A stretch of DNA of 64,000 bases from Acidimicrobiaceae bacterium (GCA_026706815.1 JAPOYA010000041.1:1-64000), one strand, 5' to 3'; counted from the stretch's first letter, positions 412 through 46,238 are shown. Translations and numbers: made by a program. Notes: generated from the sequence alone by a model not told the origin.

Positions 412-432
412 TCGTTATTGTTCAAGATTATT

Positions 433-464
433 CAAGCCCCGCCGATCGGCGGGGCTTGATTTCG
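433..464 (+). terminator. Rho-independent terminator of the rRNA operon
   Basis: Perfect inverted repeat caagccccgccgatcggcggggcttg followed by a T-rich run (atttcgtttt). Confidence 0.85.
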
Positions 465-538
465 TTTTGGCCGCGGATCGCTGGCTTGCTACCTTGAGCG
501 GGTCAGTCAGGTCAGCGATCCGACCAGGGGACCCTCCA

Positions 539-1789
539 TTGAAGTCAGCCTTCGAGTATTCTCCCGAATCGTCGCTGGGGTGGCTGGATTTCGACAGTGC
601 AGCGAGCGAGCGGGTCGGGGAACTGCTGCGAGCCTTCGAGGAGCCGGGGACGCTCGACGTTCTGGGTCTGGGCACCGTGCGCGGCGCCTTCTCAGAGATG
701 CTCAGTCCCGGAACGTCGACCGTGCAGACTCGGCTCCGATACTTCATCTTCGTGCCTTGGATCTGCCAGTGGTTGGAGAGTCAGCGGCTGCGCCCGGCTG
801 AGTTCTCTCGCAGACTGCGCGGCGACGAAGCGCGGTTGATCGAATGTCTGCGCCATCTTGGACGCGACCGGGGAGTGATCGGCTACCGCTCGGGCCGCAC
901 GCTCAAGACGATGCCGAGCGCGCTCTACTGGAGCGGTCTGCGCAAGTGGGGCATACGGCGGCTTGACTGGAGCATCGGCGAGTACGCGCGGAGAGCCGCG
1001 ACTCTCCGCGGCGCGCGGCCCGAACGCGATGACGACGGCAATGCCGCCAGGGGGTCGGTCTCCATGTGGGCTGAATTGCCGCCCGCTCCCGACGATTTTC
1101 TTCGTGCCGAACTCAGCTTCGATCTCGGAGCGGGCGAGGCGCAGGTGCTGGTGGATCAGATCCGCTGGAACCATCCAGGAACGCTGCTGGCGGTGCTGTG
1201 CGCGACACCTTGGACGGCGGCGAAGGCTGACTATCCTTGGGAACTGCCGGAACAGACCATGCGGGCGATGTCGCCGCGACTTGCCGACATACTGCATCAC
1301 GCGCGGAACTTCTCCGAAGTGATTTTCGGTCCTCAGCTCGTTTACAACCTGCTGCTGGCGCGTCGCGCCCGTGTGGAGCTGGACTGGGAGACGGAGGAGC
1401 TTGAATCGGACTTGTCGGAGAAGTCGATGATTTGGGCTGAGGGGATGGTCGAACGGCTGGACGAAGTCCGCTCCTGGGCAGCTGGGCTGCCGGAGTTCTG
1501 GACGTTGTTGAGCGATTGCAACATCGGCCCTGGAGTGAAGAAGTTCGTCGATGCCATGGTGAAACGCATCGCGGACGATCCAGAAGGTTTTGCGGACGAT
1601 CCGTGGGTAGGAGACAGGATTCGCGCCCGAGAGCTTCGCCTGAAGTCCAAGAGGGCCCGGCTGACGAACCGCTCCGTTTTGGAGAACTGGAACCTTACGG
1701 TCGTTGGCGCGCGGCCGTTCGACTTCCGCTGGGGTATCACTCAGAGCTACTTGGCCGACATCGCGGCAGCACCGGAGAGTGTTGCCTGA
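539..1789 (+). CDS. DUF6361-like protein; first gene of putative defence cassette (TTG start chosen over track start 467, which abuts the terminator)
   Basis: Translation has the family-like pattern SSLGWLDFDSAASERVGELLRAF...LGLGTVRGAFSEMLSPGTSTVQTRLRYFIFVPWI; AGGGGA about 8 nt before TTG at 539; overlaps the next gene. Confidence 0.75.
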   Translation: MKSAFEYSPESSLGWLDFDSAASERVGELLRAFEEPGTLDVLGLGTVRGAFSEMLSPGTSTVQTRLRYFIFVPWICQWLESQRLRPAEFSRRLRGDEARLIECLRHLGRDRGVIGYRSGRTLKTMPSALYWSGLRKWGIRRLDWSIGEYARRAATLRGARPERDDDGNAARGSVSMWAELPPAPDDFLRAELSFDLGAGEAQVLVDQIRWNHPGTLLAVLCATPWTAAKADYPWELPEQTMRAMSPRLADILHHARNFSEVIFGPQLVYNLLLARRARVELDWETEELESDLSEKSMIWAEGMVERLDEVRSWAAGLPEFWTLLSDCNIGPGVKKFVDAMVKRIADDPEGFADDPWVGDRIRARELRLKSKRARLTNRSVLENWNLTVVGARPFDFRWGITQSYLADIAAAPESVA

Positions 1790-3642
1790 TGCTTCAACCC
1801 GCCAACAGGTTCACCTTGATCGACGCGCTGCGACCTCCGGTCGGATTTGGCGTCGATTCGGCGATGGCCGTCACCTTCACTCTCGATCTTCGGGCACTGA
1901 CGACCGTTCCGGTCGCTTTCGCGCTCAGCGGCGGAGAGAGCACCGACGGCGGCACTGAGCAATTTGAGAGCATTGAGCTGCTGCACGCACTGCGCTCCCA
2001 CGCCGACAAGATCAGCGTCTTCTGTCAAGCGGGCTACACGGCGGTGCCGCCGTCCCATCGGGTGTTCGCCTTCCTTGAGGGGGCGGTTGTCCCGGTGGAG
2101 GCGCCGCTGGGTGGAATCGTACACCCCAAGGTGTGGGTGCTTCGCTACACCGCTGAAAAAACGGAACGGGCCGCGCAGCCCGAGCAGAGTCGGCTGCGGG
2201 TGCTGGTCGCCAGCAGGAACCTCACGTTCGACGCGAGTTGGGACACTGTGCTCCGATTCGACGAGTGCCACGACGGGGGCATCCGGCTTGAACCGGTCGG
2301 GGCGTTGTTCCAAGGACTGCTCAAATCGACCACCAGCACGGTCGACCAGGCTCACCGGCGGCGGGTGGACTCGCTGGCGGCGGCGCTGCAAACCGCGACC
2401 TTCGCGCCTCCTGTCGGGGTGGACGACCTGGTGGTTCACGTGATGGGTTTGGGCGAAGGGCGTTCGCCGTTGCCGACTGCCGCGCAACGTTCACTGATCA
2501 TCTCTCCGTTCGTGCATGACCGGTTCTTTGATGAAATACACCCCCACAGGATCGACGAACTGGTCAGCAGGCAGGAGTCGCTCGACAGCCTTGGGTCGCA
2601 AGCCCTGGCGAAGGTGGGCGCTGCCTACACGTTCGACGACGGCGGCGTGAGCGATCCCGACGACATCGATGATCAAAAAGACCGGACCGATCCGCATGAC
2701 CCCGGCCGGCCGCTGGTCGGGCTGCACGCCAAGGTGTTCGCGTTCGAGGAGGCGGGCCGGGCTCGGCTGTTCGTGGGTTCGTCGAACGCTACGGGTGCGG
2801 CGTTCGGCTCCAACATCGAGATCTTGGTGGAGTTGATCGGCGCGCTCTCCACGCTCGGGATCGACCGACTGGTTGGTAGCGTTGAGGAGGAGAGCGAAGA
2901 GCGCAGCCTGCGCGGCTTGTTCCACAAGCATGTCCCGCTCGACGAGCCGCCCGAGATGCAGGATGCCTCGTCCCTCGAAAGGGCTCGCAGGGCGCTTGCG
3001 AGCCTTCCGATTGAGGGAATTGTGGAACGGAGCGGGAGCGACTGGGCCGTCACCTACTGCAGCGCGGAGCGAGTGCCGAGATTCGAGGGCGTCGAAGTCC
3101 GCTGTTGGCCGCTCGGTTCGGCGGGTCACCGGCACCCCGTCGTCGGGAGCGCTGTCTTCGATGAGCGGTTCGAGACCAGCCTTGAAGCGATGAGCGGTTT
3201 CTTGGTGTTCGAGCTGACGCAGCACGACGGAACCCGAACCGAGTTTGTGCTGCCTGTCGCTCTGATCGGCGTTCCAGAGGAGCGTGAACGGGTGCTGATG
3301 CGCGCGCTCGTCGGCAATGCGGAACGCTTCCTGGCGTACCTGCTGGCGATGCTGGACGACGACCCGTCGCAACTCGGTCTGCCCGATGCGATCGAGCGGA
3401 TCGGTGCAGCATCTTCAGCCGACGGGCATCCCCAAACGGGTCGGCCGGTGCTGGAGAAGCTGCTGCGAACCATGCGGCGCGACCCGGCGAAGCTGAACGG
3501 ACTTGACCCGCTGGTGTCGGATCTGGCCGACGACGGTGCGCTGCCGGACGGTTTCGCCGATCTCTGGGAGGCTCTGTACAGCGTGACTACTGCGGCGACA
3601 ACAGACGCTCCTGACGCAACACCGACAGGAGCGGCAAGGTGA
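1789..3642 (+). CDS. Phospholipase D-family (HKD) protein; putative nuclease
   Basis: Two HxK motifs: VHPKVWVLRY...RVLVASRNLTFD and GLHAKVFAFE...RLFVGSSNATGAAFGSNIEI; ATG at 1789 overlaps the upstream TGA (TGATG). Confidence 0.82.
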   Translation: MLQPANRFTLIDALRPPVGFGVDSAMAVTFTLDLRALTTVPVAFALSGGESTDGGTEQFESIELLHALRSHADKISVFCQAGYTAVPPSHRVFAFLEGAVVPVEAPLGGIVHPKVWVLRYTAEKTERAAQPEQSRLRVLVASRNLTFDASWDTVLRFDECHDGGIRLEPVGALFQGLLKSTTSTVDQAHRRRVDSLAAALQTATFAPPVGVDDLVVHVMGLGEGRSPLPTAAQRSLIISPFVHDRFFDEIHPHRIDELVSRQESLDSLGSQALAKVGAAYTFDDGGVSDPDDIDDQKDRTDPHDPGRPLVGLHAKVFAFEEAGRARLFVGSSNATGAAFGSNIEILVELIGALSTLGIDRLVGSVEEESEERSLRGLFHKHVPLDEPPEMQDASSLERARRALASLPIEGIVERSGSDWAVTYCSAERVPRFEGVEVRCWPLGSAGHRHPVVGSAVFDERFETSLEAMSGFLVFELTQHDGTRTEFVLPVALIGVPEERERVLMRALVGNAERFLAYLLAMLDDDPSQLGLPDAIERIGAASSADGHPQTGRPVLEKLLRTMRRDPAKLNGLDPLVSDLADDGALPDGFADLWEALYSVTTAATTDAPDATPTGAAR

Positions 3643-6600
3643 CCCGGAAGCAGGTCGACGTCGAGGTGGTTCTAGGTGAACTGAAGGAGTTCCAGCGGCG
3701 AACCGCTAGTTGGGCATTTCAAAGAATGTTCGCCGAGGAGAATCCAGCCCACCGGTTTCTGGTGGCCGACGAGGTGGGCCTCGGCAAGACCCATGTGGCA
3801 AAGGGCGTGATCGCTCGGGTCATCGATCACCTCGGTGAGATCGGTGATGAGCGACACGACATCGTCTATGTCTGCTCGAACCAGGCGATAGCCCGCCAGA
3901 ACGTCCGCAAACTCGCCCCCGCCGGTGTCGAACCGCACAAAGGCGTCGAACGACTCACCATGCTCCCGCTCGCCAGGCTCGACGAGGGCGACGGTCACGG
4001 TTCAGGCGTCAACCTGATTCCGATCACGCCTAAGACTTCGCTCGACTTTGGACGGAACACTGGCCGGTTCAACGAACGCTGCCTGGCGTACACGTTCCTG
4101 CGAGCGACGTGGGGTCCCGAGGCATTTGACGACGCCCGCGCCCGCAGGATCCTCTGGGAACCCGTCAAAGCCGGTGACCTGCGTCTTCAGAACAAAGCGA
4201 GCGAGTACGGCCCGCAGATCGCCGGATCGGTCGATGACTTCGCCGCAGAACTCGACGAAGCCGAGCAACGACGCCGACAGCTCGGCCAGTCGACGCTGCG
4301 CGAGATCTTCGACGGTCTGGTCGACGGGTTGAAATCGAAACGGGACTTCCCGTGGGAACTCAAGAACGACCGCAAGGACCTGATCGGCGAGGTGCGACGC
4401 ATCATGGCGACGGTCGGCATCAAAGCGCTCGAACCGGACTTGGTCGTGCTCGATGAGTTTCAACGGTTCAAAGACCTGTTGTCGCCCGAACCCGACAATT
4501 TCGCGGCACAGATGGCGCATCGACTGTTCGATTACGCAGACAGCGGCACTGGTCGAGGCACGCGCACACTGCTGCTCTCGGCCACCCCGTACCGGATGTA
4601 CACGACGACAGACGAGATCGAAGGCGACCACTACGAGGATTTTCTGCACACGTGCAGGTTCCTGTTCCAAGACGATGAGCGGGTCGGCCGGCTGGGGCGC
4701 CGTTTCGCCGATCTCCGCGCGGCGCTGACTTCTGCTGAGACCCTGCCCGAAGCCGAGGCGATCTGCGCGGAGATCGGCACAGATCTGCGCGATGTCATGG
4801 CACGAACGGAGCGCTTGGCGACCACGCCGAGCCGTGACGGCATGCTGAAGGAATCTGAGTGTGCCGTGACCACGACCGCCGACGACCTCCGTGCCTACCT
4901 TCGTTTCGGGAATCTTGCCGATCTGGTGGACCATCGCGAACCGACCGAGTACTGGAAGTCGGCGCCGTACCTCGTCAACTTCATGGACGACTACAAGCTG
5001 AAGTCGGACCTGCGGCAGGCGCTGGAGGAAGGCTGGGACCTAGAGGAGGGAGCGCTGGACGCCGGCCCCGGTCTGCTGAGCTGGGACGACGTCGAGGAGT
5101 ACAGCCGCATCGACCCGCAGAACGGGCGGCTTCGCTGGATGCTCGAGGACCTGGAACAGCACCGGGCCTTCGAGATGCTGTGGGTGCCGCCGTCGCTTCG
5201 CTACTACGACACCGGATCCGTCTACGAGTCGCCCGAGGCGGGCAACTTCACGAAGCGGCTTGTGTTCTCGGTCTGGAAGGTGGTGCCGAAGGTCGTCTCG
5301 GCACTGGTGAGCATGGAGGCGGAGCGGCACGCGTTCGCCGGCCGCAACCACAACTACACCGCTGAGTACCACCGGCGGGGAGGCTCGCGTCTCGACTTTC
5401 GTACCAGCGAGCGAGTCGGGGGAGAATCCCGGGCCGGGGAGGCAGCGGGTGCTCGCAGAGCTGCGGCGATGACGACGTTCCTGTTGGTTCTGCCAAGTCC
5501 CAGCCTGGCCGAACTCGGCGATCCCAGAGCGTTGGCCGTCGGCGGCCCGCGTGACGTGGCAGACGTGCTCGCCGAGGTGGCGGCCCGGATTGCCGACGCC
5601 ATTGCGCCCCTAGTCCGCTCGGCCCCCGGAACTGGTCCTGTGGATCAACGCTGGTATTGGGCGACACCTCTGTTGCTGGACCAGCAGCGGCACCCCTATG
5701 CGGTCGAAATGCTGGCGGCCCGTGACAGTGGTTGGTGTTGGAGCGATGAAGTGCCCAAAGGCTTGCGCGCTCACTTGACCGAGGCGCGGTCAATGGTCGA
5801 CGCCGGTGGGTCAACTCTGGGGCGCCCGCCCAAAGACCTCGCCAGGGTGCTCGCCGAAGTTGCACTCGGCGGTCCAGCGCAGTGCGCGTTGCGTGCGGTG
5901 AGCTCGACAGTCGGACTACCGCTCTCAGAGGAGTACACGCTGTGGAATGCGGCTTGGATCGCGGAGGCGTTCCGTAGATTCTTCAACGCTCCCGAGGTCA
6001 CGGGTGTGGTCGTCGGCGGAAGTCTGGGGGAGTCCGATTCCGAACGCGGAACCGAGAGGTACTGGCGCGATGTTGTGCGCCACTCGATCGACGGCAATCT
6101 CCAGTCGGTGCTCGACGAGCACTGCCATGTGTTGCGTGACTGGCTGGGTCGCCTGAACCTGAGCAACGACGAGCAGCGCCGAGAGGCGGCTGACGAACTC
6201 GGATACAAGGTCGCTGACGCGCTGAGTCTTCGCAGTTCGCAATACCGCGTCGACATTCCGGTTCGGTCCGACGACGATCACCGATTCTGTTTTGAACGGC
6301 ACAGGATGCGCACCCGCTTCGCCGTCCCCTACGGAACTCAGCGGCTCGATGACGACAGCGGTCAGCAACGTGTCGGCTTGGTTTCGGGAGCGTTCAATTC
6401 GCCGTTCTGGCCGTTCGTGCTCACCTCCACATCGGTCGGGCAGGAGGGCCTCGACTTCCATCTGTGGTGCCACGCGGTCGTGCATTGGAACCTGCCGACC
6501 AACCCGGTCGACCTTGAACAGCGCGAGGGTCGGGTACACCGCTACAAGGGTCACGCCGTGCGCCGCAACCTCGCTGCAAAGCTCGGCGGCGACCTGCTCA

Positions 6601-6932
6601 CTGACGGCGTACCGACCGGTCGCGACCTGTGGGACGTCCTCTTCGACAGGGCGGTTGTGTCGAGTCCGGATTCAGACGGGGCGATTGTGCCCTACTGGGT
6701 GTTCAACGACGGCCCGGCCAAGATCCAACGTCATGTGCCTGTACTGCCGTTCAGCCGGGATGAAGCCACCGTGTCGCGGCTGCGGAAATCACTTGCGGCC
6801 TACCGGCTCGCGTTCGGCCAACCACGTCAGGAGGAGCTAGTCGAGTTCCTCGGCACGGACCGCACCGACGAGGAACTGTTTCAGCTGACCTCCCGCCTCA
6901 AGATCGACCTGTCCCCACCTGCCGACGTCTGA
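3639..6932 (+). CDS. Large SF2/SNF2-like helicase, 1097 aa
   Basis: Walker A VADEVGLGKTHVAKG; LDEFQRFKDLL (motif II); LLLSATPYRMY (motif III); TSVGQEGLDFHLWCHAVVHWNLPTNPVDLEQREGRVHRYKGH (motifs V/VI); GTGA overlap with upstream stop. Confidence 0.85.
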   Translation: MTRKQVDVEVVLGELKEFQRRTASWAFQRMFAEENPAHRFLVADEVGLGKTHVAKGVIARVIDHLGEIGDERHDIVYVCSNQAIARQNVRKLAPAGVEPHKGVERLTMLPLARLDEGDGHGSGVNLIPITPKTSLDFGRNTGRFNERCLAYTFLRATWGPEAFDDARARRILWEPVKAGDLRLQNKASEYGPQIAGSVDDFAAELDEAEQRRRQLGQSTLREIFDGLVDGLKSKRDFPWELKNDRKDLIGEVRRIMATVGIKALEPDLVVLDEFQRFKDLLSPEPDNFAAQMAHRLFDYADSGTGRGTRTLLLSATPYRMYTTTDEIEGDHYEDFLHTCRFLFQDDERVGRLGRRFADLRAALTSAETLPEAEAICAEIGTDLRDVMARTERLATTPSRDGMLKESECAVTTTADDLRAYLRFGNLADLVDHREPTEYWKSAPYLVNFMDDYKLKSDLRQALEEGWDLEEGALDAGPGLLSWDDVEEYSRIDPQNGRLRWMLEDLEQHRAFEMLWVPPSLRYYDTGSVYESPEAGNFTKRLVFSVWKVVPKVVSALVSMEAERHAFAGRNHNYTAEYHRRGGSRLDFRTSERVGGESRAGEAAGARRAAAMTTFLLVLPSPSLAELGDPRALAVGGPRDVADVLAEVAARIADAIAPLVRSAPGTGPVDQRWYWATPLLLDQQRHPYAVEMLAARDSGWCWSDEVPKGLRAHLTEARSMVDAGGSTLGRPPKDLARVLAEVALGGPAQCALRAVSSTVGLPLSEEYTLWNAAWIAEAFRRFFNAPEVTGVVVGGSLGESDSERGTERYWRDVVRHSIDGNLQSVLDEHCHVLRDWLGRLNLSNDEQRREAADELGYKVADALSLRSSQYRVDIPVRSDDDHRFCFERHRMRTRFAVPYGTQRLDDDSGQQRVGLVSGAFNSPFWPFVLTSTSVGQEGLDFHLWCHAVVHWNLPTNPVDLEQREGRVHRYKGHAVRRNLAAKLGGDLLTDGVPTGRDLWDVLFDRAVVSSPDSDGAIVPYWVFNDGPAKIQRHVPVLPFSRDEATVSRLRKSLAAYRLAFGQPRQEELVEFLGTDRTDEELFQLTSRLKIDLSPPADV

Positions 6933-6981
6933 GACCGGCCTGCAATTCGCAGCCTGAAGTTCCCAATGCACAAAATAAGGA

Positions 6982-7090
6982 CTGTTATGCTAACGCTCCG
7001 AACGCTGCTATGCTAACGCTCCGAACGCTGCTATGCTAACGCTCCTAAAACTGTTATGGTAACGCGCCTAACACTGCTACGCTAATGCCG
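6982..7090 (+). repeat. Five tandem 23-bp iterons with core GTTA-N3-TAAC; putative operator/promoter of the downstream ATPase gene
   Basis: ctgttatgctaacgctccgaacg / ctgctatgctaacgctccgaacg / ctgctatgctaacgctcctaaaa / ctgttatggtaacgcgcctaaca / ctgctacgctaatgccg, starting at 6982, 7005, 7028, 7051, 7074. Confidence 0.9.
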
Positions 7091-8344
7091 GTGGACTACA
7101 TCCCTCGACTTGTGGACAGCCAGTTGTCGCGGAACCTGCGGACGCACCCCGTGGTGTTGGTGACCGGTGCCAGGGGTGTTGGAAAGACCACGACGGCCGG
7201 TCGGTACGCCACCTCCAGTGCGTTCTTCGACGACTTGGCAACTCTCACCGTCTTTGAGGATGACCCGGAGGCTGCGCTCGGTCAGTACCAAGAGCCTCTG
7301 CTCATTGATGAATGGCAGCGGACGCCCGAGGTTGTGCGCGCGATCAAGCGGACCGTCGACAGGGACCGACGGCCCGGGCGGTTCATCCTCACCGGCTCTC
7401 CTGATCCGCAAAGCCGTTCGGAGTTCCAGGCGCTGACCGGTCGTGCGGCGGTCTTGCGACTCAACCCGATGACTGTGCGGGAACGGATTCTGCGGGTTTC
7501 CGGCCCGAGCCGAGCCACGGCGGTCTCGGTGTTGTTGTCGGGCAACCCGCCCGAAGCCGTGCCGGAGCACACGCCCGACGTCTTCGGATACCTTGACATC
7601 GCGGCAGAAGGAGGCTTCCCGGAGTGCGCGCCGGAAGCGGCCGCCGCCGAAGCGCAGGACTGGTACCGCGATTACCTGAGGGTGCTGTTGCGGCGTGATC
7701 TGCCGTTGTTCGGACGCAGGCGCTCGACTTCGCATTTTCGCAGGTATGTCACCGCAACAGCGCTGCACACGACCGGGTCGCCAGAGGATGGAACCGTGCG
7801 CTACGCCGCTGGGGTCAACCCCGGAACGCACCGGGACTATCGCCACATCCTGCTCGACTTGGATCTGACGGTTGAGGTGCCCGCCTTCGCTGGAGGGGAC
7901 ATTCCCAGTTCGGGCAGCTCGCCAAAGATGTTGTTCAGTGATTCGGGTCTCCTAGTCGCAGCGACGAATATTCCGCTGACGCAGTTGAAGCGGCGGGGCG
8001 ACCTGTACGGCAGGATCATTGAGACGTTCGTGCTCAACCAGATTCGAGCAGAACTCGAGGCTCTAGACATGGACGACTGCCTGACCCATCTGCGCACCCA
8101 TAAGGGCGTTCACGAAATCGATGCCGTCATCGAAACAGCCGATGGAGGCATCGTCGCAATCGAGGTCAAATCCGCCAACCGACACCGACCCGGCGACGTA
8201 CGCCACATCGAATGGTTGGCCGACAAGCTCGGGGACAGGTTCAAGCTGGGACTGGTGCTGACAACCGGCACCCACATCAGCAATATCCGAAGCGCGGCGA
8301 ACAGAAATATCTGGGCCGCGCCGATCAGCATTCTCTGGCACTGA
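7085..8344 (+). CDS. AAA_14/DUF4143-type ATP-binding protein
   Basis: VVLVTGARGVGKTTTAGRY...LLIDEWQRTPEVVRAIKRTVD...FILTGSPD; C-terminal VIETADGGIVAIEVKSANRHRPGDVRHIEWL (nuclease-like fold motif of this family). Confidence 0.88.
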   Translation: MPVDYIPRLVDSQLSRNLRTHPVVLVTGARGVGKTTTAGRYATSSAFFDDLATLTVFEDDPEAALGQYQEPLLIDEWQRTPEVVRAIKRTVDRDRRPGRFILTGSPDPQSRSEFQALTGRAAVLRLNPMTVRERILRVSGPSRATAVSVLLSGNPPEAVPEHTPDVFGYLDIAAEGGFPECAPEAAAAEAQDWYRDYLRVLLRRDLPLFGRRRSTSHFRRYVTATALHTTGSPEDGTVRYAAGVNPGTHRDYRHILLDLDLTVEVPAFAGGDIPSSGSSPKMLFSDSGLLVAATNIPLTQLKRRGDLYGRIIETFVLNQIRAELEALDMDDCLTHLRTHKGVHEIDAVIETADGGIVAIEVKSANRHRPGDVRHIEWLADKLGDRFKLGLVLTTGTHISNIRSAANRNIWAAPISILWH

Positions 8345-8406
8345 TTCTGCTGTTCGCGGAGGTTGTCGACGTTCAGCCGGTCGGTGCGTGGCTAGAGTTG
8401 ACCGCT

Positions 8407-34140: not shown

Positions 34141-35007
34141 GTGCGGAACGACTTGAACATAGATCAATCCTTGTCGTTGATTCACGAGACCGAGACGGCC
34201 ATCATGCTCTTGGACGAGGGTATAAGGGTCATCTCGGAATGGGACGGAGGTCAAGACCACCGGATACGAGGCTTGTTCTCGACATCGCAGGGCTTTGAAC
34301 GTCTACTCAAACTAACGATGACGCTGATCCTTACGGGCGAGGGGAAGCCACCTTCCTCCAAGGATCTGAAGAGGGAGTACGGACACCACCTCTTGCAGTT
34401 GCTTGACGACATTCTCAACAAGGCGAAAGACGATGCGGAGTTTGCAAAAACGCAGAGGCTTCTTTATGACATTCCTACTATCGGGATGACGAAGACCGAA
34501 ATCCGGAACCGGCCACCGTTTCAGGACGACATTGCGTTTTGCAGATCGGACAGGGTCTTAAGAGAGATGTTCGACATCTTTGGAGAGTTTGGCACTGGAG
34601 GGCGTTACCACAATTTCGACGTTTTGTTGGACAAGCGCTCGCGAGCGGGCGATCCGATGGAAAGATGGGAAGCGCTCGAGATGGCGATTTTCGACGAGGA
34701 ACCAAGGTGGTTAAAGATGATGGTGTCTGACACCGCACAGTTTTCTCGGCGTTGGTATCCGTATCTTGCATCGAGGCAAGTCGAGACCTTGCAGAGGGCC
34801 GCGCGTTTTCTTGTGAGACTGTGGACGCTTGGACCAGCACAACAGCATGGCAAACGACTCTCAGGCCTAGTTAGCAGATTTCTGTCGATCACCGACGACA
34901 AACTGAGTTCGGTTCCCAGTTTGCGCTCGGCTGGTCCGGGGTGGTTGGCTAATCTGGTTCGGGGAGGACGGCCATCCAGCAGACGACCCCGATGTCTTCT
35001 TCGGTGA
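34141..35007 (+). CDS. Hypothetical protein with possible HEPN-like helical region
   Basis: GTG at 34141 in frame with the track ORF; GFERLLKLTMTLILTGEGKPPSSKDLKREYGHHLLQLLDDIL resembles HEPN-type helices; lower GC than neighbours. Confidence 0.6.
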   Translation: MRNDLNIDQSLSLIHETETAIMLLDEGIRVISEWDGGQDHRIRGLFSTSQGFERLLKLTMTLILTGEGKPPSSKDLKREYGHHLLQLLDDILNKAKDDAEFAKTQRLLYDIPTIGMTKTEIRNRPPFQDDIAFCRSDRVLREMFDIFGEFGTGGRYHNFDVLLDKRSRAGDPMERWEALEMAIFDEEPRWLKMMVSDTAQFSRRWYPYLASRQVETLQRAARFLVRLWTLGPAQQHGKRLSGLVSRFLSITDDKLSSVPSLRSAGPGWLANLVRGGRPSSRRPRCLLR

Positions 35008-38000
35008 TTGAACCGGGCGGCGTTGGCGGGTCGACAGGACGTAGGCCGTAGAAAGCCACCGTGTCTACAATTCCCTGAGCGGCTTGGGTAATGTCGATGA
35101 CCTCGTTGCTCAAATTGCGTCTGATGGTTCCGAGGCCTTGTCTAACCTGGCTTCCCCGTTCCACTCCTAGAGCTTCGTAGGCCTCGCTCGCGTTTGGGGG
35201 AGTGGAGATGGAGGGGTTGGTGAGAAGCGCTCGCGCCCATCTTTGGATCGGCCCGAGGGACTTGTCGTTCGTCCCAATATCGGTTTCTTGCTCGTGTTCT
35301 TCAATGATCGACGCAGCGGCTATCGACCACGCCGTGTCTAAGTCAATGGGAGGGTCGTCTAACCCTGCTGTCAAACCGGGGTTGATCCGGCGCAAGAGAG
35401 TGGGTGGTGCCGACGCGATATCACCTTCGTCAGTCACAAAGCGCCAGTGACGCTGACCGTCCAACATCCGGCAGGCAAAGAACACTCCGGGTGGGCCTGT
35501 CGAAGGAACTCCGGGTCCCTGAGCAAAGGCTGCGCCCACTCCCCACGGAAGATCGTTCACTCTGTCGATCTCGCCTTCCCCGGCTGCCCTCCGGAGTTCG
35601 GCTCGCAACAACTCGGCGCTGAGAGCATGCGGTCCGTCCGGAGTGTCAGCCTCATCCAAAAGGGATGCATCCCCTGAGGTCAAGCGGCGGGCGTAGGCCT
35701 GGATCTCTTCGTCAGCTAAACCTTCCACCACCTCAATCTCCATCCCGTAGGGTTGGGCGGCAACGATTTTGCGACGAATGGCTGTCTCAAGTTGCAGGAT
35801 CATTTCAAGATCGCCCTGCTCGGGGAGCATGGTGACGAGGAACACGCTCGGGTGGGGACTCTTTAGTCGAACAACGCGGCCATACCGCTGTACCACCCGC
35901 TGTGGATTCCAGGGCATGTCGTAGCTGATCACCGCGGCGGCCTGTTGCAGATTCTGACCTTCGGAAAGCACATCGTTGCTCAAAAGCAGATCTACCTCGC
36001 CATCAAGTGGAACGTAACCGGGGTCCACCACGGATTCAGGACAGAAGCGTGCCAACATCCGTGTCCGCTCGTCTGGACTCGTCTCCGCTCCAACGACGGT
36101 TACTCGGTCACGTCCGTTGATCGGATCGGGAAGATGCTCATCCAGATAACGCACCGTGTCGGCAAACGCTGAGAAGATGATGACCTTCTCTGAGGGCACC
36201 CCTTCCAGCAGACGCTTGAGCAGATCCAGTTTGGGATCGTTCTTGGCGCTGAGCTCTCGCAAGGCTTCGGCTGTGGCCACCAAGCGACGCCTGTCGTTGA
36301 GCACTTCCTCGCGGAAGTTGGGATCGAAGCGGTCTGCCGATTCGACATCGGTTTCGTCCAGGTTCTCCTCGGCCCACTCGGCCAATCCGGTCTCATCAAG
36401 ATCCAGGACCGCCGCTTCTCGCAGCGCGTCTCCGCTCAGAACCTTCCCTTGGTCCCACGAGTCCAAGAACACGGTGTGGGCGTTGATCATCCGGTCGAGG
36501 GTGAGAAGACAGGCGTTCCAGCACGACTCGAACCGTTTCAGAACAGCCGATTGCAGCAGGGCGCTCAGGACCGCTTCTTGCCGGGTTTCCTCACGGTCCA
36601 ACCGGTAGGAGCTGGGCCGATAACGGGCCATGGACAGGCTGGCGATGTGCGTGGTTATGGTTCGAACTAAGCCGGGGTAGGCCGTGTCGAGGTCGTAGCG
36701 CTCTGTGGACAACTCGGGTGCGGGGAACGAGACCGGGGTGCCGTCGGGGAAGGTTTCATTGGGGTAATGCAGTTCAATAAATCGGCGGTCTCGGCGGACG
36801 CTCACCATGTCGGCCAAGGAGAACAGCACATCGGGGTTGAGGTTCTCGGGATCGCGCTCGTTGGCCCCTGCACGCAGGAACAAGCGCCGTAATGATGGGA
36901 TGCCATGGGATGCGAACGCCCGGTCATGGTGGGCGAATGTCATGACTAGGTGGTAGAGGTCCCAGAGGCCATTGTTTATTGGGGTAGCGGTGAGCAGAGC
37001 AAGATCCTTCTGTCGCCCGCCCAGCAGCCGCGAGACAGCTCGGTACCAGGTGGTCCCCGGGGTTCGCAGGGCGTGCCCTTCGTCCATGACCACAAGCCGA
37101 TATGCGTCCTTGTCGCTGTGCAGGTATCGGCGGGTGCTTGGGGTGCCCGGGCTCGCTAGTTGCTCATCGTTAGCTAGTTGGTGATAGCTGATGACCTGGG
37201 CCGGGACTCGTGCTTGGTCAAGTTTCTGCTTCCAATAGTCCACGAGTTGGGCGGGAGCTACTGCGAGTGCGTGGACCCCCCGGCGGAGTGCGTATTCCTC
37301 AATGAGAGCCACACCGATTTCGGTTTTGCCGGTGCCCACCCCGTCGGCATAGATCACTCCGTGGTGTCGTTCGAGGATTCCGAGCGCTCTGCGGAAGCCG
37401 TCTCGTTGGAAGGAGGCCAACTCCACCGCTGTCGGGGTCGGCCCCTCTGCTTGTTCATCCTCGGGGTCCAACAGTTCCAAAAGAGCCCTCAGGTATATGT
37501 CGCGTGGGCTGAGCAGGCCGACTTCGGGGAAGAGCAGCCCGCGCAGCTCGTGCTTGAATTCCTCGGCAGAGTCCCACAGGCAGTCGAACCAGGCCACGGC
37601 TTGCTGAGCTACTGGTGGGTCGTATTGCACCAGCCCCAATTCCAGGTTGGAAAACAGGCCGGCGCCGGTGAGATTGGCTGAGGTAACCAGAGCGGCTCGG
37701 GCGTCGTCTTGGTTGCCGAATAGGTAGGCCTTGCCATGGAGGAACTGGCTGGTGTAGCGCCGCACCTCCACATTGGGCCGGTCCAGCCAGGCGTCGAGAG
37801 CCACCAGCTTTGTCGCGGCGCGGCTGGGCGGGAAGCGGGCTAGGTCGCGGTCGGCTCGGAGTCCTTCCAGTGCCAATTCAAATCGGGATACCGGTAGCTG
37901 GTGTCCCAAGCCGGGTTCGGGAGCAACTCCTAGCAAGAGCCGGGTTTTGCGGTCGTCGGACACCGTTGTCGCCACATGGTGGAGACCGCCTAGGTTGACG

Positions 38001-38119
38001 TAGCCACTGGCGATAGACAACCCATGTCTCGCGGCCACATCGCCGAGCAGGTACGTCAGAGCGTCAGCGTGACGTGTGCCGTCGCTCAGATTGTCGAGCA
38101 GGTAGGGGCGCCCCGCCAT
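34949..38119 (-). CDS. PLD-like nuclease domain fused to SNF2-family helicase, 1056 aa
   Basis: N-term QFLHGKAYLFGN...ALVTSANLTGAGLFSNLELGLV (HKD motif); GVIYADGVGTGKTEIG; LVVMDEGHALR; LLTATPINN; SNDVLSEGQNLQQAAAVISYDMPWNPQRVVQRYGRVVR. Confidence 0.9.
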   Translation of the reverse strand: MAGRPYLLDNLSDGTRHADALTYLLGDVAARHGLSIASGYVNLGGLHHVATTVSDDRKTRLLLGVAPEPGLGHQLPVSRFELALEGLRADRDLARFPPSRAATKLVALDAWLDRPNVEVRRYTSQFLHGKAYLFGNQDDARAALVTSANLTGAGLFSNLELGLVQYDPPVAQQAVAWFDCLWDSAEEFKHELRGLLFPEVGLLSPRDIYLRALLELLDPEDEQAEGPTPTAVELASFQRDGFRRALGILERHHGVIYADGVGTGKTEIGVALIEEYALRRGVHALAVAPAQLVDYWKQKLDQARVPAQVISYHQLANDEQLASPGTPSTRRYLHSDKDAYRLVVMDEGHALRTPGTTWYRAVSRLLGGRQKDLALLTATPINNGLWDLYHLVMTFAHHDRAFASHGIPSLRRLFLRAGANERDPENLNPDVLFSLADMVSVRRDRRFIELHYPNETFPDGTPVSFPAPELSTERYDLDTAYPGLVRTITTHIASLSMARYRPSSYRLDREETRQEAVLSALLQSAVLKRFESCWNACLLTLDRMINAHTVFLDSWDQGKVLSGDALREAAVLDLDETGLAEWAEENLDETDVESADRFDPNFREEVLNDRRRLVATAEALRELSAKNDPKLDLLKRLLEGVPSEKVIIFSAFADTVRYLDEHLPDPINGRDRVTVVGAETSPDERTRMLARFCPESVVDPGYVPLDGEVDLLLSNDVLSEGQNLQQAAAVISYDMPWNPQRVVQRYGRVVRLKSPHPSVFLVTMLPEQGDLEMILQLETAIRRKIVAAQPYGMEIEVVEGLADEEIQAYARRLTSGDASLLDEADTPDGPHALSAELLRAELRRAAGEGEIDRVNDLPWGVGAAFAQGPGVPSTGPPGVFFACRMLDGQRHWRFVTDEGDIASAPPTLLRRINPGLTAGLDDPPIDLDTAWSIAAASIIEEHEQETDIGTNDKSLGPIQRWARALLTNPSISTPPNASEAYEALGVERGSQVRQGLGTIRRNLSNEVIDITQAAQGIVDTVAFYGLRPVDPPTPPGSITEEDIGVVCWMAVLPEPD

Positions 38120-41100
38120 CAGTCCAGCTCGCGTAGGCGGTCGATCAGAACGGTTCGATAGTCTGTAGACACCGCATCGGTCGTGAAGTCGCTGAACATG
38201 ATCTCAAGGTCTTTCGCAGTGAGGTGCCAAGTACGTGCCACTCTGGCATCAATGTCCACAAGCAGGCGCTGCCGCTCATCGGCTGTGAGCGGTCCGCACT
38301 CGACTTCTGTGGCTACAGCGAAATCAGCGAATCGTTCGTCGATTGCCGACAGACGGGCAGCCGATCGAGCGATCTCACAATAGTCCTGATCGTTCAAGAT
38401 AGGAACGGTCAGTGCTTCAAGGATGAAGAAGTTGAGGTGAATCTCTACAAAGCGGCGAGCTTGCCAGTCAAACGGCAGGCTGTTCATGATGCCGAGACAT
38501 GCGGCTTGATCCAGTTCACAGCCGCCAACAAAGGCTAGATATGGTGCGGTGTTGGTCAACAACACTTCAGGAGGAACCAGGCAGGCCCGTACCGTCCTAC
38601 TGTCGTCTGAGCGAGAGACATCCCGGAAGGCCACACGGGCGCGTTTCAACTCGGCCAAGACTGCTTGTTGTCGGTTCTTGAGAGGGACGGACTCGGCCAG
38701 CATCGATTTCAAACCTGGTCGAGACTTTCGGATTTTGATGGAGACGCTGTCGCTGGCGGGACACTTTCGCGCCTCGGACCCGTGGGGATCGTACTGATCG
38801 AAGCTCTCGCCCTTCCATAGGGGCAGACCCGATGTGGCGTCGCGCCACAGCTGTCGATCATTGGTTTCGTCCAGCTCTCTAACCGGAAAACACTGCGAAC
38901 GTCCTAGCGGGAACTGGGATCCGACCTGTAGCTTCGCCAGCAGACCGGCTTCCTCTTGTGATCGGAGTCTGGGAGTCATCCAACCGGGCAGAAATGAAGC
39001 CGGAGCCACTGGTATCCCCGGCGATGAGGACTGGCCCAGCCATGCCTGAGCTGAATCGGCTGTCCCCGCGATTGCGACACGGTGTCCGTCACCTGGCGCA
39101 CACCGCTCGGCCATGATCAGTGCAATTCCGTACTGGGGATGTGTGTCGAACATCCAGAGCCGTTTGTTCACCAGAAAGTCGATCCGTTGGGTGGACATCT
39201 GGGTGTAGAGCCAATCCCGGAAGCCCTCCGAACCCTGGCTCACGAACGCTCCCCGGGGCAGCACCACTCCGATCGATCCGTTGGGGCGAACTAGGGTGCG
39301 GTAGCGTTGGCAGAAATACTTGTAGAGGTCAGGGTCACCAACTGTGGATTGGTACTCGCCCATAGCCAACGCCTGCCGCTCTGCTTGAGCCCTCTCTCGT
39401 CCCGCATCCAGAATTTCAGCCAACTCGGGCCGCTTAGCAATGAGATCGGCGACAGCGGCTGCACGATCGACCTCACGAAGACCGTGCAGTCCGGGTAAAT
39501 GGAGCCCATACAGTGACAGTTCCTCGAGCGTCACTTCCTCCCATGGAGGGTTGCCCACGACCACATCGAATCCGGGGCTCTCGCGAAAGAACACTCTCGG
39601 AAACTTCAACGGCCAGTGAAGGAAGCTGTGTTCTTCGCCCAAAGCGGTTGCCTGTTCAGTGATCTTCTGGGTATTGGCTTCACCGTCGTCGGCAATCACC
39701 TCGAGGCCGTTTGTCAAAGCGCATTCTTGAGCACCGCTCAGCTTGAATCCCTCGGAAGTCCAAACGTCGAAGAGACGCTGCAAGCCGCGTGTTGCCAATC
39801 GGGCTTCATCGTCAGCCACTTTGCTGGCTTGTACTTCATCAGGGGTCAGGTCGTCTATGTCGGCTAGACGGGCGGCTGCCTCGGCTGCTTGGTGCAGAGC
39901 GGTTCTCAGAGAATCAGCCTGCAGCGTCCCCTCCGGCACCACGGCATCAGCATTCGCTACTCCGATCAACGAGTTACCCACGATTACATTGCGGTCAAGG
40001 TAGGCCAATGACAGCCCGGGCACGAACGACGTCAGCCATAGTGACAAGGTGGCGATCTCCGCTCCCATCGGACTCAGGTCAACCCCAAAGACGCAGTGTT
40101 TGAGAATAAGTCTCCGGAGAAGAGCGACATCGGTGATCTCCGCTCCCTGCCGTGTCTTGGCTCGTAGTCGGTCGAGCCTTTTCCGAATGGCTGGAAGCGG
40201 TCGATCGGCGAGAAACGTCACCGTTCGGTCGGCGAGTGCCTCGGTCACTTGTACGAGGAAGTGAGCACTACCACAGGCCGGATCGAGTACCGAGAAGCTG
40301 AGCAGGTCGCGAGCTGCTTTTGCCGGATCGGAGATACTGGTTTTGCGTACCTCTTCTAGGTGTCGTTCGAAAGCGGGAAGAACGGTGCGGCGCACCAGAT
40401 GCTCCACGAGTGAGACCGGCGTGTAGTACACGCCACCCGCTTTGCGTCCGCCCTCGTTGGTTTGCCACAGCAGCGACCCCGCTAGGACTTCTGGTTGCTG
40501 ATGGTCGGGAACGAATCGGTCCCTTCGGTTGTCATAGCGTAACGGCTGGCGGGTCAGCGAGAGCCGCAGGCTCAGCAGCGCCTCGTAAATGTGACCTAGG
40601 TGGCCGATTTCAAGAGAGGAGTAGTCGACTCCATGCCCTGTGGTGGCGTCTCTCCCGACGGCCGTCAACACGTCGGCAAAATACGGATCGGCCAGTTCCA
40701 AGCGTTCCAGCAACTCTGCACCCTCAAAGTCGGCGGACGCGAAGAGGGCACCGTTGTACGCGGGCACGCCCCAGGCTGGGTTGCCCGTGCGAAGAGCCCG
40801 AACCAGCGTGTTGAAGCTCGACCACAATGAGGTGGAGTTCTCACTCAATTTAGGTTTGGTCTTTTCGGCTTCGGCCACTAACTCAGAGAGCGACCGACGC
40901 CGGTAGGTGTCGTTGTCTACCGGCAAGAAGTGGGAACTTTCCGCGTAGAGCACAAACAGCAGTCGGAACAGCAGGGTGAGCGAGGCCCGTTCCAGTTCCA
41001 ATCGTTGATTGTCGTCGGCCAAGTCGAGGCCTTGGTCGTTCGCCCAATGCTCCACCCCTTTGGCCAGAGAGGGCAGCGCCTCTTGGCGGATGGTGTGATC

Positions 41101-42048
41101 CAACCGGAGTCGCAGTTCAGCCCCGAAAGCCTGAGCGTCAGCCTGGAGTCTCGCGAGTCCTCCGTCGGCCAGATACTGGGGAGCCAGCAAAGCCAAGTAA
41201 GGTCGGTCGTGTTCTCCCAGCAAGTCAGCGTCTAGATCCAGCCATTCGGCGGTAGTGGCAGCTTGGTCGCAGTCGAACAACCGGTACCGGTTGCGGTAGG
41301 CAAGTATTCCGTAGCGGGCGCCGTGCTCGTGGCAGTCGGAGGCCAGCACTCCCTCGGCAGGTCGGCCCATGTCGTCAAGGCGTATGAAGTCCTGTGGCTT
41401 GGCCCTGGGGTGGATTACGGCTACCCGTCGACTGCCGTAGCGGGCCAAGTAGCCGCGCTGGGGGAGTTGCTCGACCTCATATCCCAGCCCGCGCATCATG
41501 GTTCGCCAGTCGCCAATGATCGATAGTTCCGCTGTTGCTTGCGAAGCGGCTTCCCAGGTGCCCGGCTCGCCGCGGAAGCGGGATTCGAGTGTGTGGTGGG
41601 TCAACAGCCCGTGGACGACCTTGCCCCGGCCGTCCAAGCGGGTCACCTCGCCTGCCAAGTAGCGGACAGCATCGAAGTCGCTCATCGGCGCGGTGGCCTC
41701 GATTGTGTCGGCCAATCCAGCGCAGTCCACCGAGCGAATGGGATCTTCGTGGGTTATGGGCCCGAGTGTGCGGACGCTGTTGGGGCGCTCAGGGTCGTCG
41801 GAAATCAACAAGTACCAGAAGTCCTTGTTCTTCACGCGCTCTCGCCACCGGGACCGCATGTTGCGCTCGACAGACTTCTCAGCTATCGCCAATTCAATAG
41901 AATTGATCCGCACCGCTCGACTGATGTGCGGCTGGGTTGGCATCTCTCGGGCGATGCCGCGGGCCAACAGCCGGTTGAGCAGGTCGTCGGCGTTCACGGA
42001 CCTCAACTGTACTCGGCACCCTCTGACTGCTACTGCATTTGCCGACAT
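38119..42048 (-). CDS. Large Eco57I-like class I N6-adenine DNA methyltransferase, 1309 aa
   Basis: SVLDPACGSAHFLVQVTEAL (motif I); FDVVVGNPPWEEVTL (NPPW motif IV); TGA/ATG overlap with downstream helicase. Confidence 0.9.
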   Translation of the reverse strand: MSANAVAVRGCRVQLRSVNADDLLNRLLARGIAREMPTQPHISRAVRINSIELAIAEKSVERNMRSRWRERVKNKDFWYLLISDDPERPNSVRTLGPITHEDPIRSVDCAGLADTIEATAPMSDFDAVRYLAGEVTRLDGRGKVVHGLLTHHTLESRFRGEPGTWEAASQATAELSIIGDWRTMMRGLGYEVEQLPQRGYLARYGSRRVAVIHPRAKPQDFIRLDDMGRPAEGVLASDCHEHGARYGILAYRNRYRLFDCDQAATTAEWLDLDADLLGEHDRPYLALLAPQYLADGGLARLQADAQAFGAELRLRLDHTIRQEALPSLAKGVEHWANDQGLDLADDNQRLELERASLTLLFRLLFVLYAESSHFLPVDNDTYRRRSLSELVAEAEKTKPKLSENSTSLWSSFNTLVRALRTGNPAWGVPAYNGALFASADFEGAELLERLELADPYFADVLTAVGRDATTGHGVDYSSLEIGHLGHIYEALLSLRLSLTRQPLRYDNRRDRFVPDHQQPEVLAGSLLWQTNEGGRKAGGVYYTPVSLVEHLVRRTVLPAFERHLEEVRKTSISDPAKAARDLLSFSVLDPACGSAHFLVQVTEALADRTVTFLADRPLPAIRKRLDRLRAKTRQGAEITDVALLRRLILKHCVFGVDLSPMGAEIATLSLWLTSFVPGLSLAYLDRNVIVGNSLIGVANADAVVPEGTLQADSLRTALHQAAEAAARLADIDDLTPDEVQASKVADDEARLATRGLQRLFDVWTSEGFKLSGAQECALTNGLEVIADDGEANTQKITEQATALGEEHSFLHWPLKFPRVFFRESPGFDVVVGNPPWEEVTLEELSLYGLHLPGLHGLREVDRAAAVADLIAKRPELAEILDAGRERAQAERQALAMGEYQSTVGDPDLYKYFCQRYRTLVRPNGSIGVVLPRGAFVSQGSEGFRDWLYTQMSTQRIDFLVNKRLWMFDTHPQYGIALIMAERCAPGDGHRVAIAGTADSAQAWLGQSSSPGIPVAPASFLPGWMTPRLRSQEEAGLLAKLQVGSQFPLGRSQCFPVRELDETNDRQLWRDATSGLPLWKGESFDQYDPHGSEARKCPASDSVSIKIRKSRPGLKSMLAESVPLKNRQQAVLAELKRARVAFRDVSRSDDSRTVRACLVPPEVLLTNTAPYLAFVGGCELDQAACLGIMNSLPFDWQARRFVEIHLNFFILEALTVPILNDQDYCEIARSAARLSAIDERFADFAVATEVECGPLTADERQRLLVDIDARVARTWHLTAKDLEIMFSDFTTDAVSTDYRTVLIDRLRELD

Positions 42049-42219: not shown

Positions 42220-42306
42220 TGGTGCGGACGGGGGGAGTCGAACCCCCACACCCTTTCGGGTACCAGGACCTAAACCTGGCGCGTATGCCAGTTCCGCCAC
42301 GTCCGC
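42220..42306 (-). tRNA. tRNA-Leu (anticodon UAG) with encoded CCA end
   Basis: Reverse complement GCGGACGTGGCGGAACTGGCATACGCGCCAGGTTTAGGTCCTGGTACCCGAAAGGGTGTGGGGGTTCGACTCCCCCCGTCCGCACCA; anticodon loop TTTAGGT; long variable arm. Confidence 0.95.
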
Positions 42307-45266: not shown

Positions 45267-46238
45267 ATGACCCCGACATTGACAGGCTCGACCAACATAG
45301 AGGCTCCGCCGGCACCTTCTGCTGCACCGGTTCGTGGGGCTTCCACGGTGCCCACAGTGAGAGAGGCCGTTGAGCGCTTGGGAGTGTTGAAAGAGCACCA
45401 ATTGAAGCATGAGAGCCAGGCGCGCAGCTGGTCGGCGATGATGCGCCGCCATTGCTCGGGCATATGGGAGAGGCCTGTCAACGAGCTCATTCGCTCTGAG
45501 GTTCTGGACGTGCTGGGAGAGCTCCAGCACAAACCGTCGACCATGAAAAAGGTGCGGACTGGGCTGAGGCAGGCGATCACGCTGGCGATGGGTAGAAACG
45601 AGGCCATACGGACCAACCCCGCGGGCGAGGCCATCGACTTCGAGGTCAAGTTGATGCACGGCAAGTACGAGCACCGGCACCACCGCAGTCTGCCCCACGG
45701 CGAAGTCGGTCGGCTCCTCAACGATCTCAGCAGCGGATCAAGCGCCGACGCGGTACGGTTGGTCGCGCTGACCGCTGTGCGGTTAGGGGAGGCGGCAGGG
45801 GCCAAGTGGGAAGAGTTTGACTTGGATGCCGGCGTCTGGACGATCCCCGCCGCAAGGCGCAAGACTAACGAGCCATTGCGCGTGCCGCTCAGCCGTCAAA
45901 CCTTGCGAGTGCTGCGCGGCGCACGCTTGCGCTCTTTGGCGTCGGCGAGTTCGTGGGTGTTCCCCCGAGAGCGCGAACCCATAGCCAACCATGTCACCCA
46001 CTCGGAAATTCGCCGAGAAGTCAAGACGGCCGGCTATGATACAACAGTTCACGGGTTGCGGAGTTCGTTCAAGGCGTGGGCACTTGAGGCGGGAGTGCCC
46101 CGCGAGGTCTCCGAATTCGCATTGGGGCATCGTGTGGGTTCAGCCGTGGAGAGGGCTTACAGTCATGGCACGGACCTGTTCGACAGGCGCAGAGAGGTCA
46201 TGCAACTCTGGTCCGACTACCTGCTGCGCGCTGATTAG
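45267..46238 (+). CDS. Tyrosine-type recombinase/integrase
   Basis: ALTAVRLGEAAGAKWEEFDLDAGVWTIPAARRKT; VHGLRSSFKAWALE; HRVGSAVERAYSHG (R...HGLRSS...Y pattern). Confidence 0.85.
   Translation: MTPTLTGSTNIEAPPAPSAAPVRGASTVPTVREAVERLGVLKEHQLKHESQARSWSAMMRRHCSGIWERPVNELIRSEVLDVLGELQHKPSTMKKVRTGLRQAITLAMGRNEAIRTNPAGEAIDFEVKLMHGKYEHRHHRSLPHGEVGRLLNDLSSGSSADAVRLVALTAVRLGEAAGAKWEEFDLDAGVWTIPAARRKTNEPLRVPLSRQTLRVLRGARLRSLASASSWVFPREREPIANHVTHSEIRREVKTAGYDTTVHGLRSSFKAWALEAGVPREVSEFALGHRVGSAVERAYSHGTDLFDRRREVMQLWSDYLLRAD

What the first reader, a model, noticed from the sequence alone, without database searches (positions are those of the whole stretch)
539..6932. DUF6361 - bipartite PLD - large SF2 helicase cassette directly behind the rRNA operon: candidate under-described defence system
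Seen: three ORFs in one direction with TGATG and GTGA start/stop overlaps, so almost certainly one translationally coupled unit, beginning just past the 5S terminator. Product 1 matches DUF6361 by eye; product 2 carries two HxK phosphodiesterase motifs; product 3 has a full SF2 motif set. Established: PLD nuclease plus helicase is the core logic of NgoAVII/CglI-type restriction and of DISARM (drmC with drmA/drmD). Inference: this cassette lacks a DUF1998 (DrmB) gene and a methyltransferase, so it is neither of those as described. DUF6361 may be the specificity or regulatory component.
Basis: partly seen in the sequence, partly recalled or inferred. Interest (0 to 1): 0.78.

Follow-up and report, generated by a model that had tools for sequence, protein, structure and literature searches.

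The report
An Azaca (ZacABC) anti-phage operon
The three genes behind the ribosomal RNA operon are an intact copy of Azaca, an already named three-gene bacterial anti-phage system whose working mechanism is still unsolved; the locus itself is ordinary for its kind.

Summary
ORFs 539-1789, 1789-3642 and 3639-6932 match the PADLOC models ZacA, ZacB and ZacC over their whole length (E = 3.6e-103, 2.7e-138 and 0). This is Azaca, not an undescribed cassette. The genes are inseparable: all 70 of 70 fetched loci with enough downstream DNA carry A, B and C in this order, nearly always with overlapping start and stop codons, across bacteria and archaea. ZacB has two complete HKN phosphodiesterase half-sites, invariant in 61 of 61 relatives; its predicted fold is closest to the bilobal Tdp1/PLD3 enzymes, not NgoAVII. 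ZacC keeps its SF2 motifs and is most like RapA, DpdE and DrmD. ZacA is all-helical with no match in the PDB. In three congeners the 5S gene runs straight into the gene at window ~8390, so 466-8387 is a roughly 7.9-kb insertion. Best mechanism (inferred): an ATP-driven translocase (ZacC) delivers a PLD nuclease (ZacB) to invading DNA, with ZacA as recognition or control subunit. Interest is low for the locus, moderate for the unsolved mechanism.

The parts
539..1789 (+). zacA (DUF6361), 416 aa, TTG start
   Evidence: PADLOC ZacA E=3.6e-103 over residues 11-411; PF19888 E=2.7e-51; AlphaFold2 model all-helical, pLDDT 90.5, no PDB or viral fold match
1789..3642 (+). zacB, bilobal PLD-superfamily phosphodiesterase, 617 aa
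   Evidence: PADLOC ZacB E=2.7e-138; HKN half-sites H112/K114/N144 and H313/K315/N333 plus E344 invariant in 61/61; model pLDDT 88.1 matches Tdp1/PLD3
3639..6932 (+). zacC, SF2/SNF2-like ATPase, 1097 aa
   Evidence: PADLOC ZacC E=0, 1021.6 bits, residues 6-1093; Helicase_C; motif residues invariant in 50 relatives; nearest solved relative RapA
1787..1791 (+). TGATG stop/start overlap zacA-zacB
   Evidence: overlap or near-overlap conserved in relatives
3639..3642 (+). GTGA start/stop overlap zacB-zacC
   Evidence: overlap possible in 66 of 70 relatives
432..459 (+). intrinsic terminator of the rRNA operon, upstream of zacA
   Evidence: similar hairpin after 5S in congeners L124 and L125
466..8387 (.). 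approximate extent of the insertion (zacABC plus the DUF4143 gene) relative to empty sites in congeners
   Evidence: in G444, G442 and G443 the 5S is followed at about 50-75 bp by the homologue of window ~8388 onward
7085..8344 (+). AAA_14/DUF4143 ATPase (PADLOC candidate PDC-S01); co-inserted neighbour, not a core part
   Evidence: 91% identical copy beside Azaca in G441, but the family has 12 copies in this genome

Best explanation
The locus is an intact Azaca (ZacABC) anti-phage operon, carried on a roughly 7.9-kb insertion behind an rRNA operon of an Acidimicrobiaceae-type actinobacterium. Identity is near certain (about 0.97). Proposed mechanism: ZacA, ZacB and ZacC form one complex. ZacC is an SNF2/RapA-like ATPase that moves along double-stranded DNA. 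ZacB is a single-chain, two-lobed PLD nuclease with one complete active site. ZacA is a helical, non-catalytic recognition or gating subunit. When the complex meets foreign or aberrant DNA, ATP hydrolysis by ZacC drives or licenses ZacB cleavage, much as the ATPase does in SauUSI and CglI. Shown here: identity, conserved catalytic residues, fold class, obligate linkage, mobility. Inferred: complex formation, DNA as substrate, division of labour, ATP-gated cleavage. The confidence given is for the mechanism.
For: Full-length ZacA/B/C model hits. 70 of 70 complete loci carry ABC in order, with overlapping genes and correlated divergence (r = 0.90-0.96), as expected for subunits of one machine. 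All HKN and nearly all SF2 motif residues are invariant, so both enzymes are under catalytic selection. The ZacB fold matches the DNA phosphodiesterases Tdp1 and PLD3, then BfiI, SauUSI and NgoAVII. ZacC is nearest to RapA, DpdE and DrmD. The family is patchy (13 of 51 genomes), sits at an insertion site, on plasmids and beside other restriction and defence genes. ATP-driven PLD-nuclease restriction is established for SauUSI (PMC7913695) and CglI/NgoAVII (PMC4267653).
Against: No biochemistry exists for any Zac protein in the papers I could read; PMC10482375 and PMC12926258 list the mechanism as unknown. ZacB TM-scores to Tdp1/PLD3 are only about 0.3, so the match gives fold class, not substrate. 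ZacA has no fold match and is acidic (pI 5.7), so a DNA-reading role is a guess. No methyltransferase is conserved nearby (2 of 98 neighbours), so how self DNA is spared is unexplained.
Confidence: 0.55

Rival explanations
1. [quoted passage not shown]
For: No cognate methyltransferase is conserved, so selective self-protection has no visible basis. The ZacB fold resembles enzymes acting on DNA ends or ssDNA, Tdp1 and PLD3. Hachiman is a precedent for a helicase-gated nuclease acting this way (PMC12278908).
Against: ZacC is SNF2/RapA-like, not Ski2-like as HamB is; no direct data either way.
Confidence: 0.25
2. ZacB is a phospholipase or another non-DNA phosphodiesterase, so Azaca acts on membrane or RNA.
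For: The HKN superfamily includes lipases; PLD1 also appears among fold matches, at rank 43.
Against: The nearest folds and profile hits are DNA phosphodiesterases and restriction nucleases, and the partner is a RapA/DrmD-like DNA-type ATPase.
Confidence: 0.07
3. It is a housekeeping DNA-repair operon, not defence.
For: Tdp1-like nuclease fold; position beside the rRNA operon and core genes (tlyA, nadK, recN and pyrG by eye; pyrG).
Against: Present in only 8 of 396 genomes of the phylum (DUF6361) and 13 of 51 of the family; empty site in three congeners; plasmid-borne in 45 records; independently classed as anti-phage.
Confidence: 0.04

Closest known systems
Azaca (ZacABC)
   Same: All three genes, their order and full-length profile matches to every component
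   Different: Nothing structural. The host lineage adds a DUF4143 ATPase gene downstream in some Acidimicrobiaceae loci
SauUSI (ATP-dependent PLD restriction enzyme, 7clg)
   Same: PLD nuclease coupled to an SF2 ATPase; ZacB profile and fold hits
   Different: SauUSI is one polypeptide that forms a dimer through its nuclease domains and has a methyl-DNA-reading domain (PMC7913695); Azaca is three genes, with both HKN half-sites in one ZacB chain and no recognised reader domain
NgoAVII / CglI restriction systems
   Same: Separate PLD nuclease and helicase-like ATPase genes
   Different: Those have a methyltransferase gene and homodimeric R proteins (PMC4267653); ZacB is bilobal with the best fold match to Tdp1, and no methyltransferase is adjacent
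DISARM (DrmC, DrmD)
   Same: PLD protein plus SNF2-like ATPase; weak local similarity to DrmC and DrmD
   Different: DrmC 16 bits against cut-off 133, DrmD 49 against 610; no DrmB, no methyltransferase
DpdE (7-deazaguanine DNA system) and RapA
   Same: Closest characterised relatives of the ZacC C-terminal ATPase lobe
   Different: Similarity is confined mainly to about 45 residues around motifs V-VI

Membership tests
Azaca (ZacABC) | ZacA homologue (DUF6361) | tested here: met
   PDLC03828 E=3.6e-103, profile 3-393/396
Azaca (ZacABC) | ZacB homologue with PLD-type catalytic motifs | tested here: met
   PDLC03829 E=2.7e-138, profile 1-581/586; both HKN sets intact
Azaca (ZacABC) | ZacC homologue, SF2 helicase-like ATPase | tested here: met
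   PDLC03830 E=0, profile 4-1016/1019
Azaca (ZacABC) | three genes adjacent, in order A-B-C, same strand | tested here: met
   same in 70/70 relatives
Azaca (ZacABC) | protects cells from phage | not testable with these tools
   needs a plaque assay in a laboratory strain
DISARM | DrmA/DrmB/DrmC core with a methyltransferase | tested here: not met
   No DrmB or methyltransferase among 539-8344; DrmC and DrmD matches far below cut-off
NgoAVII/CglI | linked DNA methyltransferase | tested here: not met
   Neighbours are 5S rRNA and a DUF4143 ATPase; N6_Mtase in only 2 of 98 neighbours of relatives
NgoAVII/CglI | R protein with one HxK per chain, working as a homodimer | tested here: not met
   ZacB carries two HKN half-sites in one chain; best fold match is bilobal Tdp1; the one-HxK-per-chain feature of R proteins is from my own knowledge, homodimers from PMC4267653
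SauUSI-type IV restriction | PLD, SF2 ATPase and modified-base reader fused in one chain | tested here: not met
   Functions split over three genes; no reader domain found by Pfam

The most novel reading that the evidence does not exclude
Azaca works by a mode not yet described among PLD-helicase systems: a Tdp1/PLD3-like, end- or ssDNA-directed bilobal PLD nuclease is gated by a RapA-like translocase and a new all-helical subunit (ZacA), discriminating phage DNA without any methyl mark.
Probability: 0.3. Interest if true: 0.5.

Novelty: already known. Interest (0 to 1): 0.22.

Why it matters
It removes a false 'new system' lead by naming it. It also adds usable facts about a mechanism still listed as unknown: the exact catalytic residues to mutate, a Tdp1/PLD3-like fold for ZacB, the lack of any known fold for ZacA, obligate three-gene linkage across bacteria and archaea, and an empty-site comparison showing the cassette as a discrete insertion.

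Tried and rejected
DISARM and NgoAVII membership: tested and failed. DUF4143/AAA_14 gene as a fourth component: rejected as core, because the family has 4-28 copies per congener genome and lies directly downstream only in a few Acidimicrobiaceae loci, in two diverged forms. ZacA function by fold: no PDB or viral match better than E = 1.4. A promoter between the 5S terminator and zacA: no sigma-70-like site. Flanking direct repeats or an integrase at the insertion ends: none seen. ZacA in viral contigs: none; one unannotated phage record with a 27% match, not followed. Literature searches for ZacA/ZacB/ZacC and DUF6361 gave nothing relevant; the name Azaca led to the papers. The founding paper is not held, so its experimental details were not checked.

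Full report
OBSERVATION. The window opens with the 3' end of a 23S rRNA (1-196) and a 5S rRNA (294-410), followed by a 12-pair terminator hairpin at 432-459. Three ORFs follow on the + strand: 539-1789 (416 aa, TTG start that is shared by the sister genome), 1789-3642 (617 aa, TGATG overlap) and 3639-6932 (1097 aa, GTGA overlap).

IDENTITY. PADLOC-DB models match all three products over essentially their whole length: ZacA (PDLC03828, 3.6e-103), ZacB (PDLC03829, 2.7e-138) and ZacC (PDLC03830, E = 0, 1021.6 bits). Pfam agrees on DUF6361 (2.7e-51) and Helicase_C, with only a sub-threshold PLDc_2 hit for ZacB. That ZacA, ZacB and ZacC are the three components of the system named Azaca is from my own knowledge. 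PMC12278908 lists 'Azaca (ZacC)' among helicase-bearing defence systems. PMC10952713 lists a PLD-like domain in Azaca and cites Millman et al. 2022. PMC10482375 and PMC12926258 class its mechanism as unknown. The original paper is not held.

LINKAGE. A scan of one genome per species found 471 relatives of ZacA; the best 80 were fetched. In every one of the 70 loci with at least 5.2 kb of sequence from the start of zacA, zacB and zacC follow in the same order and strand. Choosing the start nearest the upstream stop, 58 of 70 A-B junctions and 66 of 70 B-C junctions overlap, so the coupling noticed by eye is a family trait. Hosts include Actinomycetota, Chloroflexota, Pseudomonadota, Bacillota, Cyanobacteriota, Planctomycetota and archaea (Natronomonas, Methanothrix). 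Pairwise divergences of A, B and C are strongly correlated (r = 0.90-0.96, 47 loci), consistent with inheritance as one unit.

CATALYTIC ANATOMY. ZacB has two complete PLD half-sites in one chain: H112/K114/N144 and H313/K315/G330-S331/N333, plus E344. H, K and N of both half-sites are identical in 61 of 61 relatives that share as little as 27% identity with the window protein. Its AlphaFold2 model (pLDDT 88, pTM 0.90) matches Tdp1 and PLD3 best (E down to 7e-7), with BfiI, SauUSI and NgoAVII further down. TM-scores are about 0.3, so this supports the bilobal PLD fold class and not a specific substrate. ZacC keeps DEVGLGKT, DEFQ, SATP and GQEG...QREGR..R in 50 relatives, with key residues invariant. 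Its nearest solved relative by profile is RapA, and its nearest named families are DpdE and DrmD, mainly by about 45 residues around motifs V-VI. ZacA gives a confident all-helical model (pLDDT 90.5) with no acceptable match in the PDB (best E = 1.4) or among viral proteins.

SURROUNDINGS AND MOBILITY. In three genomes of the same genus (G444, G442, G443) the 5S gene is followed after some 50-75 bp by the homologue of the TPR gene that starts around window 8390. Window ~466-8387 is therefore a discrete insertion (or was lost elsewhere) holding zacABC and a DUF4143 ATPase gene. The sister genome G441 has the same gene order, though its contig ends just upstream of zacA. G442 has an empty site here but carries Azaca on another contig, which favours mobility. 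No flanking repeats or integrase were seen at the ends. Within the family 13 of 51 genomes have ZacC. Relatives occur on plasmids (45 records). On a Cronobacter plasmid the operon follows a tyrosine recombinase. On an Agrobacterium Ti plasmid it lies beside a multiubiquitin/ThiF cluster and a UvrD/PD-(D/E)XK pair. Neighbours of relatives often include UvrD helicases, Mrr and PD-(D/E)XK nucleases, but N6-methyltransferases occur in only 2 of 98. No background rate was computed for these counts.

MECHANISM. Shown: two conserved enzyme centres, a third conserved partner without an enzyme-like fold match, obligate linkage, and a patchy, mobile distribution. Inferred: the three proteins form one ATP-driven nuclease; ZacC translocates on DNA, ZacB cuts, ZacA recognises or gates. 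The precedents are SauUSI, whose ATPase powers translocation and whose nuclease shreds DNA (PMC7913695), and CglI/NgoAVII, where a helicase-like ATPase must hydrolyse ATP for the nuclease subunit to cut (PMC4267653). The main rival is a Hachiman-like, whole-genome-degrading response (PMC12278908). The absence of a conserved methyltransferase leaves self-sparing unexplained under the restriction model and is natural under the rival.

VERDICT. The finding is real and correctly read at the sequence level, but the system is already known as Azaca. What stays open, and is worth an experiment, is how Azaca works.

Noticed in passing
window 34949-42048 (-): A second, separate restriction-like pair: a PLD plus SNF2 helicase fusion (1056 aa; PADLOC C3a139 'HKD+Snf2' 3.5e-38) overlapping an Eco57I/type IIG-like methyltransferase (1309 aa; 4.5e-117), next to tRNA-Leu (42220-42306) and a phage-type integrase gene (45267-46238).
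   Followed up: partly
window 6982-7096: Four to five tandem copies of a 23-bp unit (CTGYTATGSTAACGCKCC...) between zacC and the DUF4143 gene; in six congeneric genomes it occurs only here, with one degenerate copy in the sister genome.
   Followed up: partly
window 7085-8344: AAA_14/DUF4143 ATPase listed by PADLOC as candidate PDC-S01, but the family has 12 copies in this genome and up to 28 in a congener, so the candidate label looks unspecific here.
   Followed up: yes
L128:8998-15129: On Agrobacterium pTiL-11 the zacB position is annotated as two separate hypothetical ORFs, suggesting a broken or split zacB in an otherwise intact Azaca operon.
   Followed up: no
L033:6138-6923 and L035:7517-7783: Short DUF6361 N-terminal ORFs without zacB or zacC nearby in two other genomes of the phylum: remnants or solo genes.
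   Followed up: no
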